Notes under the pieces: model-generated | The model's database searches: none | The model's input: only the letters and a program-made list of their open reading frames with translations | What the model was told of the DNA's origin: nothing | Origin: Hydrogenophaga sp. BPS33 | Lineage (GTDB): Bacteria > Pseudomonadota > Gammaproteobacteria > Burkholderiales > Burkholderiaceae_C | Reading direction: 5' to 3' | Assembly: GCF_009859475.1 (NCBI RefSeq) | Contig: NZ_CP044549.1 | Coordinates: forward strand, 1,984,001-2,048,000 | Length of the DNA stretch: 64,000 nt | Position numbers and translations under genes: made by a program | Shown: in pieces, positions 1 through 9,680 of the stretch | Numbering within the stretch: the first letter of the stretch is position 1 | Layout of the letters: the number at the start of each line of letters is the position of its first letter

Positions 1-372
1 TTTCAACACGTTGTGCGCTTCACAGCCCGGGTAGGCAATGGATTCCAGCGGCAGCCATTCCAGCCGCGCGCGGGGCTCCAGCGTGAGAGCCACCTGTTGG
101 GTCGCGGTGGCGCCCTCGGTGCGGTAGAAGCGCGTGGCACCGGGGGTGGATACGAGGCCGTGCGCGCCAGCGTCGGCCCGCACCGTGATGTCCAGCGTGT
201 CACCACCCACCAGCCCGCCGGGCGGGTGCACGATCACGTTGTGGCAGATGCCGCTGCCTTCGGGGTACAGGCTCTTCAGGATGCGCAACGGCCCGGTGTG
301 CGTGTGCCTAAGCACGGTGCGTTGGGCGTTGTCGCGTTGGTAGTGCAGATCGAGTTGGGCGTGCCAGGGCAT
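1..372 (-). CDS. ureD: Urease accessory protein UreD, N-terminal part
   Basis: UreD is an accessory protein for assembling the nickel centre of urease. The 124 visible residues start MPWHAQLDLHYQ. They carry family-typical stretches: a GPLRI-LKSLYPEG segment, a CHNVIVHPPGGLVGGD segment, STPGATRFYR, and LEWLPLESIAYPG near the edge. The gene runs off the left edge, so its C-terminal half is outside the window. It lies downstream of and in the same direction as SBP1 and deaminase 1. This places urease at the end of the purine-to-urea pathway encoded further right. The ATG at 372 is the first plausible start, 71 bases after the deaminase stop codon. Confidence 0.9.
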   Translation of the reverse strand, partial: MPWHAQLDLHYQRDNAQRTVLRHTHTGPLRILKSLYPEGSGICHNVIVHPPGGLVGGDTLDITVRADAGAHGLVSTPGATRFYRTEGATATQQVALTLEPRARLEWLPLESIAYPGCEAHNVLK

Positions 373-443: not shown

Positions 444-929
444 TCAAGGCTGCCAGAAACCCAGATGCGGTTCGCTCGCTTCGTCCACCAGGACCGGGCC
501 GATGCACTCGATAGGGTGGGGCGAGGCGGCGAACACGTCGCGGCACGAGAGTTCGGCGTCGCGCTGTTCGGCGCGCTCGCCCCGGAAAACACGCAGGCGC
601 ACCGCGTCGATGCCGAACACCACGCGCCCGATGTTGCTCCAGAAGATCGCGCCCGCGCACATCACGCAGGGCTCGGCGGACGAATACAGCGTGGCGCGCG
701 ACAAAGTCTCGCGGTCCACCGCGGGGCTCACCTGGCGCACGGCGTTGGTCTCGGCGTGGCCGGTGCAGTCGCCGGTTTCGCTGGTGTTGCACCACGCTTC
801 GGCGAGCACGCGGTCGTCGTCGCCGACGACCACCGCGCCAAAGGGGCGGTTGCCCCTCTCGCGCGCCACGCGCGACCAGCCGATGGCCTGGCGCAGGTAG
901 GCGCCGTCGCGTTCGCTCAGCGCGTTCAT
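444..929 (-). CDS. CDA-superfamily nucleobase deaminase, probable guanine deaminase (copy 1)
   Basis: This is a 161-residue zinc deaminase. The zinc/catalytic motifs are H58-A-E60 and P87-C-x-x-C91, as in Bacillus-type GuaD, cytosine deaminases and TadA-like enzymes. The length and the SNIGRVVFGID segment after the PCxxC motif fit the small GuaD-like group. Guanine to xanthine is the likely reaction given the purine-catabolic neighbours, but cytosine or another aminopurine cannot be excluded. The ATG overlaps the stop of the upstream binding-protein gene (ATGA), so translation is probably coupled. A paralogue with the same layout lies at 3316-3792. Confidence 0.85.
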   Translation of the reverse strand: MNALSERDGAYLRQAIGWSRVARERGNRPFGAVVVGDDDRVLAEAWCNTSETGDCTGHAETNAVRQVSPAVDRETLSRATLYSSAEPCVMCAGAIFWSNIGRVVFGIDAVRLRVFRGERAEQRDAELSCRDVFAASPHPIECIGPVLVDEASEPHLGFWQP

Positions 930-1960
930 GCCGCTTTCACCGCGCGCTCGCCAGCGGCGGGCAGCATGGCGCGGTTGAACACGCCTTCCACACCGGGACG
1001 GGCCTTGAGGCCGAACACGTCCACCACTTCGTCCACCTGCTGTTCCAGCGTGCGCTTGAACACATCGCCCAGGCCGTGGCTTTGCGTGTCGGCAGCGGCG
1101 ATGTAGCGCTGCGTGATGCGCCAGCGCTCCAGCTCCACGGCTTCGTTGAGGATGGGCTCGCGCAGCTTGGCCGCCGCAATGGCGGCAACCGGGTCGCGCA
1201 TGCTTTCCTGGATGGCGCGGTTGGTGGCGCGCAGGAAGCCGGCCACGGCGGCAGGGTTCTGCGTGATCATCTGGTTGCTCGCGAGGATGGCGTTGCCGTA
1301 CAGGTTCACGCCAGCGCTGGTGTATTCGAGGATGGCGAGTTCGTCGAGCTTCATGCGTGCGAACAAAGACACGGCCGAATCGTGGAAGTAGGTGGCGCCG
1401 TCCACGTCGCCGCGCACGACGACGTTGTCGCGCGAGGCGAAGTCGGTGGTGGACCACTGGAAGAAGTTGTCCTTCACGCGCAGCTTGCGCGCCACCAGAG
1501 GCCACGCGCGGCGGGTGGACTCGACGGCGGCGGCGGCGATCTTCTTGCCTTCGAGGCTGCGGAAGTCGCTGGTGATGCCACGGTCCTTGCGGCCGATGAT
1601 CGCAAAGGGTGCGCGGTTGTAGTACTGGTACACGGCCTGCACCACAGGGGTGCCCGCTTGCTGGGCCTGGAACTCGATGAGGGAGCTGATGTCGCCCAGG
1701 CCCATCTGGTACACACCGCTGGCAATGCGCGTGATGGACGCGACCGAACCGGAGCCCACGTCGATGCTCACGTCCAGGCCTTCGTCCTTGTAGTAGCCCT
1801 TGCTCTGTGCGAGGAAGAAAGGCGCGGTCTGTCCGGTGATGCGGAAGTCGAGCGTGAACTTGATTGGGGTAGGCTTGCCCGCGCCTTGCGCCCAGAGGGC
1901 GGGTGCGGCGAGTGCCGACACAGCGGCAGCGGAAGAGGCGAAGAAGTGACGGCGTTGCAT
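926..1960 (-). CDS. NMT1/SsuA-type ABC transporter substrate-binding protein (SBP1)
   Basis: This is a 344-residue periplasmic binding protein of the NMT1/THI5-like family. The N-terminus MQRRHFFASS followed by an alanine-rich hydrophobic stretch has a twin-arginine (RRxFF) signal, with cleavage likely after LWA near residue 24. The mature part begins PIKFTLDFRITGQTAPFFLA, followed by SKGYYKDEGLDVSIDVG, which is typical of the family. No permease or ATPase is adjacent. It may share the permease/ATPase pair at 3789-5411, or serve a unit outside the window. The start is the ATG at 1960, preceded by a GGAG motif. Its long leader contains a candidate xanthine-I riboswitch (2024-2080). The ligand is probably a purine or oxopurine by context. 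Confidence 0.85.
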   Translation of the reverse strand: MQRRHFFASSAAAVSALAAPALWAQGAGKPTPIKFTLDFRITGQTAPFFLAQSKGYYKDEGLDVSIDVGSGSVASITRIASGVYQMGLGDISSLIEFQAQQAGTPVVQAVYQYYNRAPFAIIGRKDRGITSDFRSLEGKKIAAAAVESTRRAWPLVARKLRVKDNFFQWSTTDFASRDNVVVRGDVDGATYFHDSAVSLFARMKLDELAILEYTSAGVNLYGNAILASNQMITQNPAAVAGFLRATNRAIQESMRDPVAAIAAAKLREPILNEAVELERWRITQRYIAAADTQSHGLGDVFKRTLEQQVDEVVDVFGLKARPGVEGVFNRAMLPAAGERAVKAA

Positions 1961-2023
1961 GTCGAAGCTCCAATGAAAAGATCTTGCGTGAACCCGCTGC
2001 GACGCATGGCCGCAGGGGACTGG

Positions 2024-2080
2024 CAAGAGCAATTTCCGGGCGGGTGCATGAACGGGCACGCGCTGAACGCTTCTACTCTG
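2024..2080 (-). ncRNA. Candidate xanthine-I (NMT1-motif) riboswitch, leader of SBP1
   Basis: Read on the minus strand, this leader begins CAGAGTAGAAGCGTTCAGC (2080-2062) and ends GGAAATTGCTCTTG (2037-2024). Both blocks are identical to those in the facing plus-strand leader at 2181-2231. CAGAG can pair with CTCTTG (outer stem, one bulge). The segment between the blocks folds as a second stem, GCG-TGC with GCA-CC-CGC, whose sequence differs from the other copy but still pairs. Two stems with a conserved asymmetric internal loop, upstream of an NMT1-domain gene in a purine cluster, match what I recall of the NMT1 motif (xanthine/urate riboswitch). I could not run a covariance model. Confidence 0.72.
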
Positions 2081-2180
2081 CAAGGCGCCGGTATGCACGA
2101 GCCGTGCCAATACGCAGGCTTCAAAACGGTGCGACGCAAAACCCGCGCGACGTGGTCTGCGTTTTGCTAGCATGCGCACC

Positions 2181-2231
2181 CAGAGTAGAAGCGTTCAGCG
2201 CCGCGCCACGCGGGGCAGGAAATTGCTCTTG
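2181..2231 (+). ncRNA. Candidate xanthine-I (NMT1-motif) riboswitch, leader of the Rieske oxygenase
   Basis: This is the plus-strand twin of the element at 2024-2080. It starts CAGAGTAGAAGCGTTCAGC (2181-2199) and ends GGAAATTGCTCTTG (2218-2231). The inner stem is built from CCGCG and CGCGG with a short CCA-containing loop, a different sequence from the other copy but still paired. The element ends 37 bases before the ATG at 2269, and the AGGAG ribosome-binding site lies at 2254-2258. Control at translation or by RNA accessibility is therefore plausible; no terminator hairpin follows it. The assignment rests on conserved loops with compensating stems and on gene context. Confidence 0.72.
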
Positions 2232-2268
2232 AGATTCCTCAGGCCATTTCTTTCAGGAGCGCTTTGTC

Positions 2269-3288
2269 ATGCTGGTCACCCAACAACCCGTCTTCCGCCG
2301 TTACTGGCACGCTGTCATGCCGTTGGCAGCGCTGGCCGACGGGCCCAAGCCATTTACCCTGCTCGGTGAAAACATCGTGCTCTTTCTGGACGAGCACGGC
2401 GCGCCGGCCGCTTTGAAGGACCGCTGCTGCCACCGCACCGCGAAGTTGAGCAAGGGTTGGTGCAAGAGCGGCGGCATCCAGTGCGGTTACCACGGCTGGG
2501 TCTACAACCGCCAGGGCCGCGTGATCGAGATTCCGCAGTACCCGAAGGAACGCGAGATCCCCAAGGACTACGGCACGGTGGCGTACCACTGCGTGGCGCG
2601 TTACGGCTATGCATGGGTGGCGCTGGAAGACCCGGTGGCCGAGGTGCCGGATATGCCCGAGTTCGAGGCCGAGGGCTGGCGCACGATTTTTCAGTTCTAC
2701 GAGACGTGGCACACGAGCCCGGTACGCGCGCTGGAAAACTCGTTCGACAACTCGCATTTCAGCTTCGTGCACCGCGCCACCTTCGGGGTGGCCGCATCCC
2801 CAGCGCCGAGCAAGTACGAGCTGGTGGAAAACGACGCGGGTTTCTATGCCGAGACGGTGATCGATGCGGTGAACCCGGAGCGCTTCCAGCGCATCAGCGG
2901 CGTGAAAGACCCGATCACGCAGCGGCACATGCGCAACGCGTATTACCAGCCGTTCTCGCGGCGCCTGGACATCGAGTACCCCAGCGGCATCCGCCACGTG
3001 ATCATCAACGCGTTCACGCCGATCGACGACGGCCGCATGCAGTTGTGCCAATGGCTGTTCCGCAACGACACCGAGGCCGATTGCCCGGCGCAGATGCTGA
3101 TCGACTTCGACGACGAGATCACGCGCGAGGACAAGGACATTCTCGAATCGACCGACCCGGACGCGGTGGTGGACTTGCGGCGGCGCGGCGTGGAGTACTC
3201 GATGGACTCCGACCGGCCGGGGATCCTGATTCGTCGCCGCTTGATGGCCATGCTGAGCGCGGCGGGGGAGGCCGAGGCGCACCGCTGA
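2269..3288 (+). CDS. Rieske non-heme iron oxygenase, terminal oxygenase component
   Basis: This is a 339-residue ring-hydroxylating-type oxygenase. The Rieske [2Fe-2S] site is C53-C-H55 and C72-G-Y-H75 (spacing CxHx16CxxH); the usual proline between the first Cys and His is replaced by Cys54. The mononuclear iron site is visible as D160-x-x-H163 and H168 within an NSFDNSHFSFVH segment. No reductase or ferredoxin gene is adjacent. It is divergent from the purine-linked SBP1 operon and shares its RNA leader element, so a purine substrate is likely. Klebsiella HpxD, a Rieske oxygenase proposed to act in purine oxidation, is a possible functional analogue. The start is the ATG at 2269 with AGGAG upstream. 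Confidence 0.85.
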   Translation: MLVTQQPVFRRYWHAVMPLAALADGPKPFTLLGENIVLFLDEHGAPAALKDRCCHRTAKLSKGWCKSGGIQCGYHGWVYNRQGRVIEIPQYPKEREIPKDYGTVAYHCVARYGYAWVALEDPVAEVPDMPEFEAEGWRTIFQFYETWHTSPVRALENSFDNSHFSFVHRATFGVAASPAPSKYELVENDAGFYAETVIDAVNPERFQRISGVKDPITQRHMRNAYYQPFSRRLDIEYPSGIRHVIINAFTPIDDGRMQLCQWLFRNDTEADCPAQMLIDFDDEITREDKDILESTDPDAVVDLRRRGVEYSMDSDRPGILIRRRLMAMLSAAGEAEAHR

Positions 3289-8577: not shown

Positions 8578-9680
8578 AAGACACCGTTGTGCCTGTCAAG
8601 TGTTTGCATCGCAGAAACGAGTGGCATCGAAAGGTGTTCTGGATTTGAGCACGCCATAAACGATGGCCAACAGCTTGTGCATACATGCCACGACGATCAC
8701 TTTGCCCGGTTTGTTCTGAGCCTTCAAACGTTGCCAGAACGCGGCCACAGCCGGGTTGTGCCGGCCCGCGACCATGGCCGGGAAGTACAGCGCATGCTTG
8801 AGCTGACGGTGGCCCTGCGCGTGCGTGCCGCCCCGCTTGTTCAGCGATGTGCCGGACTGACGGATCGCGGGCGACAGACTCGCGTAGGCAATCAACGCCT
8901 TGACGCTCTTGAACCGTTCGGGTCGGCCAATGTAGGCCAGCAACTGAGGGATGGTCCGATCGCCCAGTCCGGGGATGCTGTGCAACAGCTGGGCACGTCC
9001 TCGCAGATGCGGATCGTCGTCAATGGTTTGACGGATTTGCGCCTTGACCTGGGCGATCGTCTTGTCCAGGGTCGCCAGCATCTCGTGCAGCGAGGCTTGC
9101 ACAACGCCATGGGCCACCTCCAGGCGGTTGGCCTCGCTCTGGCGCATTTCCTGCAGGGCATCCAGTCTGGCGACCAAGGCCTGCAGCGCACGCACACCAG
9201 GCGCTGGCGCCTCCCACAGCTCGGGCGAGGCCATGCGGCAGAACCGCGCCAGGCTCTTCGAATCCCCCTGGTCGGTCTTGTTGCGCGTGCCCTCGAGTTC
9301 GATGAACCGCTTGACCCTCAAGGGGTTGACCACCGAGACCCGCACACCCAGGTCGTGCAGGTGCAGTGCCAGCGGTTCGTGGTACGAGCCTGTGGCTTCC
9401 ATGCAAACATGCAGCGCAGCGAGCTCCTGGCCTTGCGGCAGGTGGGTCTGCAGCCATTGATGCAAGGCTGCGAAGCCCATGCCTGAATTGGCAAACACCT
9501 TGCAGCGGTACTTGCCTTCGTCGTTGAGCAAGGCCACATCGAGCTTGGCCTTGCTGACATCCACGCCCAGCGATGAAGTCATGCCGTTCTCCTGTCAACA
9601 ACAGCGCCATATCCGACTTGCGCATCCTGATATGCGAGGTCGCCGCTGGCCACAGACCGGCGGCGCCCCAAGACACCGTT
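8578..9680 (-). mobile_element. IS110-family insertion sequence, ends approximate
   Basis: The boundaries are a guess from the direct repeat AAGACACCGTT found at 8578-8588 and again at 9670-9680, which brackets the transposase gene and about 90 bases of structured noncoding DNA upstream of it. A length near 1.1 kb is at the short end for the family. The true ends could lie further right, up to about 9780. Comparison with an empty site would settle them. Confidence 0.45.
8596..9582 (-). CDS. IS110-family transposase (DEDD)
   Basis: This is a 328-residue transposase. The N-terminal RuvC-like domain carries the DEDD set: D8 (GVDVSKAKLD), E62 (CMEATGSYH), D104 and D107 (NKTDQGDSKS). The C-terminal Transposase_20-type domain has IPGLGDRT near 203-210 and the putative catalytic serine S243 in RQSG. 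The frame is intact and of normal length, so the element may still be active. It is inserted between the oxopurine permease and maeB. Exact element ends are not visible, as IS110 elements lack clear terminal inverted repeats; see the 11-base repeats at 8578 and 9670. Confidence 0.93.
   Translation of the reverse strand: MTSSLGVDVSKAKLDVALLNDEGKYRCKVFANSGMGFAALHQWLQTHLPQGQELAALHVCMEATGSYHEPLALHLHDLGVRVSVVNPLRVKRFIELEGTRNKTDQGDSKSLARFCRMASPELWEAPAPGVRALQALVARLDALQEMRQSEANRLEVAHGVVQASLHEMLATLDKTIAQVKAQIRQTIDDDPHLRGRAQLLHSIPGLGDRTIPQLLAYIGRPERFKSVKALIAYASLSPAIRQSGTSLNKRGGTHAQGHRQLKHALYFPAMVAGRHNPAVAAFWQRLKAQNKPGKVIVVACMHKLLAIVYGVLKSRTPFDATRFCDANT

What the first reader, a model, noticed from the sequence alone, without database searches (positions are those of the whole stretch)
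2024..2231. Two mirror-image xanthine-I (NMT1-motif) riboswitch candidates in one divergent promoter
Seen: two blocks, CAGAGTAGAAGCGTTCAGC and GGAAATTGCTCTTG, occur once on each strand, each pair facing its own gene. The stem between the blocks has a different sequence in the two copies but pairs in both, which is evidence for conserved RNA structure and against a simple DNA operator. Known: the NMT1 motif is a riboswitch for xanthine and urate found upstream of NMT1-domain and purine genes in proteobacteria. Inference: both a binding protein/deaminase/urease arm and a Rieske oxygenase are controlled by oxopurine. A back-to-back pair of riboswitches is unusual.
Basis: partly seen in the sequence, partly recalled or inferred. 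Interest (0 to 1): 0.85.

Follow-up and report, generated by a model that had tools for sequence, protein, structure and literature searches.

The report
Two back-to-back xanthine riboswitches
Two RNA sensors of a known type, for xanthine and uric acid, sit back to back between a transport-protein gene and an oxygenase gene; the same arrangement is already published in a close relative, but the way the RNA controls the oxygenase gene may be the opposite of what is assumed.

Summary
Both copies pass Rfam's cut-off for the xanthine (NMT1) riboswitch: 57.1 bits on + (2178-2233) and 50.5 bits on - (2022-2083), cut-off 36; no other Rfam family reaches its cut-off in the window. Each lies in the leader of its own gene: an NMT1-family binding protein (-) and a Rieske oxygenase (+).

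The claim that a back-to-back pair is unusual does not hold in this family: 44 of the 75 same-family genomes with the motif (399 searched) carry one, and a pattern scan of named genomes gave 59 more or less distinct loci. One is the orthologous locus of Hydrogenophaga intermedia S1, already described in a figure legend (PMC7373994). So this is a new member of a known kind.

What may be new is the sign of control. The class is published as an OFF switch from one reporter. In Rieske-side leaders the ribosome-binding site is complementary to the aptamer's own P1 and J1 strands, in step with the tail of each aptamer, and forming the aptamer frees it. That predicts ON with ligand. It is a folding inference, it conflicts with the published reporter, and I found no ligand-response data for this arm.

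The parts
2178..2233 (+). xanthine (NMT1) riboswitch aptamer of the Rieske leader
   Evidence: RF03054, 57.1 bits, gathering 36, full length
2022..2083 (-). xanthine (NMT1) riboswitch aptamer of the binding-protein leader
   Evidence: RF03054, 50.5 bits, gathering 36, full length
2182..2187 (+). P1 5' strand, + arm
   Evidence: alignment to RF03054
2188..2196 (+). J1/P2a 5' strand GAAGCGUUC; in the predicted free fold pairs nine contiguous bases with 2257-2265
2224..2229 (+). P1 3' strand, + arm; with the tail to 2234 complementary to 2251-2261
2251..2265 (+). ribosome-binding region of the Rieske gene (AGGAG at 2255-2259) complementary to P1 3' strand/tail and to J1/P2a
2269..3288 (+). Rieske oxygenase with VanA_C domain, 339 aa
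   Evidence: Pfam; nearest solved relatives SxtDIOX/SxtT and methylxanthine demethylases NdmA/NdmB
2074..2079 (-). P1 5' strand, - arm
   Evidence: alignment to RF03054
2026..2031 (-). P1 3' strand, - arm; tail 2023-2028 can pair six bases with 1982-1987 (p 0.24 against shuffles)
1967..1972 (-). ribosome-binding site TGGAGC of the binding-protein gene
   Evidence: sequence; start at 1960
926..1960 (-). NMT1/THI5-like periplasmic binding protein, 344 aa
   Evidence: Pfam NMT1 114.8 bits
2084..2177 (.). 94-nt stretch between the two aptamers; must hold or overlap both promoters (inferred); no sigma-70-like match found

Best explanation
Two genuine class-I xanthine (NMT1) riboswitch aptamers lie head to head in a divergent regulatory region. 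Each is transcribed into the leader of its own mRNA and acts on translation start of that gene: the NMT1-type binding protein on the left, the Rieske oxygenase on the right. Shown by computation: membership in RF03054, recurrent gene context and head-to-head arrangement, and an alternative pairing between the aptamer's P1 3' strand and tail (plus J1 in the window's Rieske leader) and the leader downstream, matched within loci. Inferred: ligand binding stabilises P1 and J1, breaks that pairing and changes ribosome access. For the Rieske arm I expect more translation with xanthine or urate (about even odds); for the binding-protein arm the sign is open.
For: CM hits. Orthologous pair in H. intermedia S1, Rieske 87% and binding protein 80% identical. 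Structure: P2a pairs co-vary among 231 distinct aptamers; 208 distinct P2 segments fold with mean z -2.18, 7 with z above 0. Own against swapped tail-linker duplex: Rieske -3.94 vs -2.81 kcal/mol, 0 of 5000 permutations; binding protein -4.29 vs -3.62, 0 of 5000; dioxygenase -4.52 vs -4.00, 3 of 5000. Window + leader: 11-bp P1 3'/tail to RBS complement, p 0.017; opening SD to AUG costs 13.1 kcal/mol free and 3.5 with the aptamer forced, the gain 9.6 reached by 0 of 20 linker shuffles. Dereplicated leaders: gain 6.3 vs 2.7 shuffled, 22 of 22 Rieske above own shuffle mean; 3.4 vs 0.6, 32 of 34 binding protein.
Against: Yu and Breaker report OFF from a wild-type/mutant reporter comparison. The swap controls with reversed linker or tail are not clean in the merged set: 51 and 40 of 5000 for Rieske, 35 and 60 for binding protein, so relatedness accounts for part of the signal. 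For the dioxygenase side the last 30 nt before the start show none (2427 of 5000). Contiguous helices beat shuffles at p<0.05 in 12 of 28 Rieske, 24 of 37 dioxygenase but only 8 of 45 binding-protein leaders. By mean SD openness the window's + arm hardly changes (0.33 to 0.41). The window's - leader gain is reached by 5 of 20 shuffles, and both H. intermedia arms are weak (3 and 2 of 20). Folding ignores tertiary contacts, magnesium and co-transcriptional order.
Confidence: 0.85

Rival explanations
1. Both arms are OFF switches as published: xanthine or urate binding reduces ribosome access and lowers uptake and oxidation genes when oxopurines accumulate.
For: E. coli lacZ reporter of one H. 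intermedia S1 arm: the wild type was lower than a core mutant in rich and minimal medium (text read). [quoted passage not shown] L112 shows two NMT1 genes and a 2OG dioxygenase on that side.
Against: In the text read, the reporter was not titrated with ligand. Forcing the aptamer makes SD to AUG easier to open in 57 of 60 Rieske leaders and harder in none; binding protein 55 easier, 7 harder of 81; dioxygenase 25 easier, 1 harder of 35, at 1 kcal/mol, though forcing alone biases this way. In the Rieske leaders a J1 A-to-U change itself lowers the free opening cost (window 13.1 to 9.6-10.6; H. intermedia 11.5 to 8.5-9.7), but not in the H. intermedia binding-protein leader (8.2 to 8.1-8.2).
Confidence: 0.4
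2. The mirror blocks are a palindromic DNA operator for a repressor shared by both genes.
For: Perfect 21-nt inverted repeats.
Against: Arm spacing runs from 59 to 305 nt in 44 pairs; many arms occur singly; both arms fit the covariance model over its full length; the stems differ in sequence and still pair.
Confidence: 0.02
3. The + arm acts by transcription attenuation: the hairpin CTTGAG-ATTC-CTCAGG (2228-2243), followed by a T-rich stretch, competes with P1.
For: Terminator-like match at 2228-2243; similar CTTGAG/CTCAAG hairpins before CCATTTC in several Hydrogenophaga Rieske leaders in the listing.
Against: Weak stem (6 pairs, 3 G-C) and broken T-run; 2 sites found against a shuffle mean of 0.5; Variovorax-type Rieske leaders listed have no such hairpin by eye; Yu and Breaker report almost no intrinsic terminators in the class.
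Confidence: 0.08

Closest known systems
Xanthine riboswitch class (NMT1 motif, Rfam RF03054), Yu and Breaker 2020, PMC7373994
   Same: Full-length model match on both arms; NMT1 and oxygenase genes; leader without a strong terminator; proposed control of translation start.
   Different: Published as OFF; the Rieske-side leader of the window is predicted to open with ligand. No ligand test exists here.
Divergent pair of Hydrogenophaga intermedia S1 (L112), PMC7373994 Fig. 5 legend
   Same: Head-to-head aptamers, Rieske gene on one side (87% identical protein) and NMT1 protein on the other (80%).
   Different: Core spacing 113 against 104 nt in the window; the tail on the binding-protein side is CTGTAG instead of CTTGCC. 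Downstream genes differ in part.
NMT1 riboswitch crystal structure, Xu et al. 2021, PMC8266621 (passages read)
   Same: The quoted pairs U13-A38 and C15-G36 of P2a, and the J1/J2 residues named, fit the window's GUUC...GGAA core.
   Different: An aptamer study; no leader or expression platform in the passages read.

Membership tests
RF03054 xanthine riboswitch | Covariance-model score above the gathering cut-off over the full motif | tested here: met
   57.1 and 50.5 bits, cut-off 36, model 1-56
RF03054 xanthine riboswitch | P1, P2a and P2b stems conserved as pairs, not as sequence | tested here: met
   P2a positions 17-44, 18-43 and 19-42 take UA/UA/CG, GC/UA/CG, GC/CG/UG and others; P2 segments fold, mean z -2.18. 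Exception: the GUUC/GGUC group, 21 of 231, lacks two of the three P2a pairs
RF03054 xanthine riboswitch | Position in the leader of purine-related or NMT1/oxygenase genes | tested here: met
   35 nt (Rieske) and 61 nt (binding protein) from aptamer end to start codon; Pfam
RF03054 xanthine riboswitch | Binds xanthine and uric acid | not testable with these tools
   needs probing or calorimetry
RF03054 xanthine riboswitch | Ligand turns expression OFF (published for one representative) | tested here: inconclusive
   folding predicts the opposite sign for Rieske leaders; no expression data
DNA operator (rival) | Palindrome of fixed geometry whose sequence, not RNA pairing, is conserved | tested here: not met
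   spacing 59-305 nt; stems vary with pairing kept

The most novel reading that the evidence does not exclude
The Rieske arm is an ON switch: the empty RNA uses its own ligand-pocket strand (J1/P2a, nine pairs) or its P1 3' strand and tail (eleven pairs) to hide the ribosome-binding site, and xanthine or urate frees it, so the class contains substrate-induced members. If the published OFF result for the partner arm also holds, one kind of sensor drives two divergent genes in opposite directions from one short shared region.
Probability: 0.4. Interest if true: 0.65.

Novelty: new member of a known kind. Interest (0 to 1): 0.38.

Why it matters
As a find it is a correct but ordinary instance of a known riboswitch class in an arrangement that is already in print. 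It matters because it exposes a testable conflict: the class is filed as an OFF switch on one mutant comparison, while the leaders on the Rieske side of its divergent pairs look built to open with ligand. Settling the sign would tell whether these bacteria use xanthine/urate as an inducer of purine use or as a brake. The survey also gives a census of divergent pairs and a recurrent core variant that may deserve a ligand test of its own.

Tried and rejected
DNA operator: rejected (variable spacing, full-length model hits, stems that pair with different sequence).

Recent inverted duplication or gene conversion keeping the arms alike: rejected as a rule. P2 identity of own arms 0.528 against 0.520 swapped, reached by 606 of 5000 permutations, 89 distinct pairs. 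One pair of 89, L127 (Hylemonella gracilis), has identical P2 in both arms. The mirror identity in the window is conservation of the aptamer core.

Mean SD openness as a measure of sign: too blunt. In the unnamed set 30 of 99 arms open, 3 close and 66 stay within 0.2; in the named set Rieske 25 open, 0 close of 41; binding protein 4 open, 2 close of 53; dioxygenase 7 open, 0 close of 13. The window's + arm falls in the neutral class (0.33 to 0.41), so I moved to opening cost, after seeing that result. Forcing a fold lowers opening cost by itself, hence the linker-shuffle control.

SD held by aptamer strands: Rieske 0.81 against 0.51 with shuffled linkers, 19 of 23 above their own mean but only 8 of 23 with at most 2 of 40 shuffles as high; binding protein 0.13 against 0.11 (44); short dioxygenase leaders 0.68 against 0.56 (4).

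Explaining the published OFF result by a side effect of the mutant: works in silico for the Rieske leaders, not for the H. intermedia binding-protein leader. The exact base of the published mutant in that RNA was not seen; three J1/P1 A positions were tried.

Rows dropped: 1 of 132 hits (G320, contig C2) had no fetched locus, and of the 10 motif-bearing genomes outside the family only 4 were fetched; 21 of 131 arms had no usable gene type or start and were left out (110 used); L170 of 60 stretches lacks the 3' core and was dropped; 9 of 118 named arms stayed untyped; G165 was left out of the first swap tests; one search used dereplicated leaders of at most 100 nt plus the two window leaders. 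Named and unnamed sets overlap in part; merged tests drop identical leaders. The dioxygenase label rests on an N-terminal motif; three members checked carry DIOX_N and 2OG-FeII_Oxy.

Full report
OBSERVATION. Rfam RF03054 is matched over its full 56 positions on both strands, 57.1 bits at 2178-2233 (+) and 50.5 bits at 2022-2083 (-), gathering score 36; nothing else in the 64 kb reaches an Rfam cut-off. The whole-genome search reports only these two.

SURROUNDINGS. Left of the pair, on -, is an NMT1/THI5-like binding protein (926-1960); right, on +, a Rieske oxygenase with a VanA_C domain (2269-3288). Its closest solved relatives by sequence are SxtDIOX/SxtT and the methylxanthine N-demethylases NdmA and NdmB, which fits a purine substrate but does not prove one. 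Facing the Rieske gene is a minus-strand run: xanthine-permease family protein (pbuX model 508 bits, cut-off 414), a second NMT1 protein, ABC ATPase, ABC permease and a deaminase. No aptamer was found there.

HOW COMMON. Of 399 genomes of the same family, 75 have a match, 128 matches in all; 44 of the 75 have a head-to-head pair 59-305 nt apart, and no same-strand or convergent pair lies within 1 kb. The other motif-bearing genomes have single or far-apart copies, or copies on other contigs. Of 399 genomes drawn from the order, 17 match; 10 of these lie outside the family (4 of the 10 below the gathering score) and none shows a close pair; the call used strict filters. Of the 44 pairs, 43 have a binding-protein gene on one side; opposite it lies a Rieske gene in 9, a dioxygenase typed by motif in 32, and 2 were left untyped; the 44th pair has a dioxygenase on one side and an untyped gene on the other (Pfam on three dioxygenases). 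A scan of named genomes for the two exact cores 61-121 nt apart gave 60 stretches; 59 have both 3' cores. They include Hydrogenophaga, Variovorax, Acidovorax, Comamonas, Hylemonella, Tepidicella, Xylophilus, Polaromonas, Lampropedia and Verticiella. The window's + aptamer is letter for letter that of a Hydrogenophaga MAG (L146), so the host is probably a Hydrogenophaga (inference).

ALREADY IN PRINT. L112 is H. intermedia S1, the strain of Yu and Breaker's reporter. Their Fig. [quoted passage not shown] Its Rieske and binding proteins are 87% and 80% identical to the window's. So the divergent pair is not new. Of that paper I read parts 1-3 of 5 of the text and passages, no figures or supplements; of PMC8266621 passages. 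Other literature searches were read as listings only; among them PMC7373994 was the one hit recognisably about opposed riboswitches, and PMC8040213 was not opened.

MECHANISM. The aptamer's P1 3' strand is followed by a variable tail. In Rieske leaders with a short linker the complement of this stretch lies on the ribosome-binding site: tail UUGA goes with UUCAGGAG or similar, UUUC with GAAGGAG, UUCG with CCGAAGGAG (table; rarer tails fit less well, for example UCGG with CCAAGGAG). Swapping tails between dereplicated leaders weakens the duplex: Rieske -3.94 to -2.81 kcal/mol (36 leaders, 22 tails, 0 of 5000 permutations), binding protein -4.29 to -3.62 (71, 38 tails, 0 of 5000), dioxygenase -4.52 to -4.00 (36, 11 tails, 3 of 5000). 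Controls in the same call, reversed linker and reversed tail, give 51 and 40 of 5000 for Rieske, 35 and 60 for binding protein, 3363 and 1881 for dioxygenase. In the first, smaller set nine controls gave 105 to 1790 of 2000. So shared descent explains part of the signal, not all of it. Restricted to the last 30 nt before the start the signal stays for Rieske (0 of 5000) and binding protein (2 of 5000) and vanishes for the dioxygenase side (2427), where the complement often lies 56-150 nt upstream of the start.

In the window's + leader the predicted free fold pairs the pocket strand GAAGCGUUC (2188-2196) with GAGCGCUUU (2257-2265), nine contiguous pairs over the ribosome-binding site; the P1 3' strand and tail can instead pair eleven with 2251-2261. 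GCGCTT within 24 nt of the start occurs in 12 of 28 Rieske leaders, 0 of 37 dioxygenase and 0 of 45 binding-protein leaders. Opening SD to AUG costs 13.1 kcal/mol in the free ensemble and 3.5 with the aptamer forced; 0 of 20 linker shuffles reach the gain of 9.6, mean 2.4. Across dereplicated leaders the gain is 6.3 against 2.7 shuffled for Rieske (22 of 22 above own mean, 13 of 22 with at most 1 of 20 shuffles as high), 3.4 against 0.6 for binding protein (32 of 34; 17 of 34) and 3.4 against 1.3 for five dioxygenase leaders (4 of 5; 2 of 5). Against this, the window's - leader is within its shuffles (3.2, 5 of 20), and both H. intermedia leaders are weak (Rieske 3.2, 3 of 20; binding protein 2.0, 2 of 20).

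These results predict that ligand eases translation, most clearly for Rieske leaders. Yu and Breaker concluded OFF from a wild-type/mutant comparison of one arm, probably the binding-protein arm. For that arm my folding cannot overturn the experiment; for the Rieske arm I found no experiment.

VERDICT. The open and testable point is the sign of control on the Rieske side.

Noticed in passing
dioxygenase-side aptamers, e.g. in L038, L043, L046, L047, L055: A recurrent core variant GUUC...GGUC (21 of 231 distinct aptamers; 18 on dioxygenase leaders, 3 untyped) breaks two of the three P2a pairs that other members keep. It might mark a subclass with altered ligand preference.
   Followed up: partly
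L079 and L092, dioxygenase leaders (genomes G262, G325): The leader seems to hold four mutually complementary pieces: P1 tail CTCTTGAAG, complement CTTCAAGGG, a second CTCTTGAAG and the SD CTTCAGGAG (seen by eye). By that logic ligand would again free the SD.
   Followed up: no
long dioxygenase leaders, e.g. L038, L043, L054, L064, L072: A perfect or near-perfect complement (CTTCAAGAGC) of the P1 3' strand lies some 56-98 nt before the start codon rather than at the SD, so a control point other than the SD is likely there.
   Followed up: no
window 1-372 (-) and G000:C1:1940867-1941232: The genome's only reported UreD gene sits beside the binding-protein gene, about 42 kb from its only reported urease alpha; a DNA cytosine methylase gene and an HATPase gene lie next to UreD, suggesting an inserted island.
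   Followed up: partly
L127 (same locus as L037), Hylemonella gracilis: Both arms of this divergent pair carry an identical P2 hairpin, the one such case in 89 distinct pairs, which looks like a local gene conversion.
   Followed up: yes
window 8596-9582 (-): IS110-family transposase beside the xanthine-permease gene.
   Followed up: no
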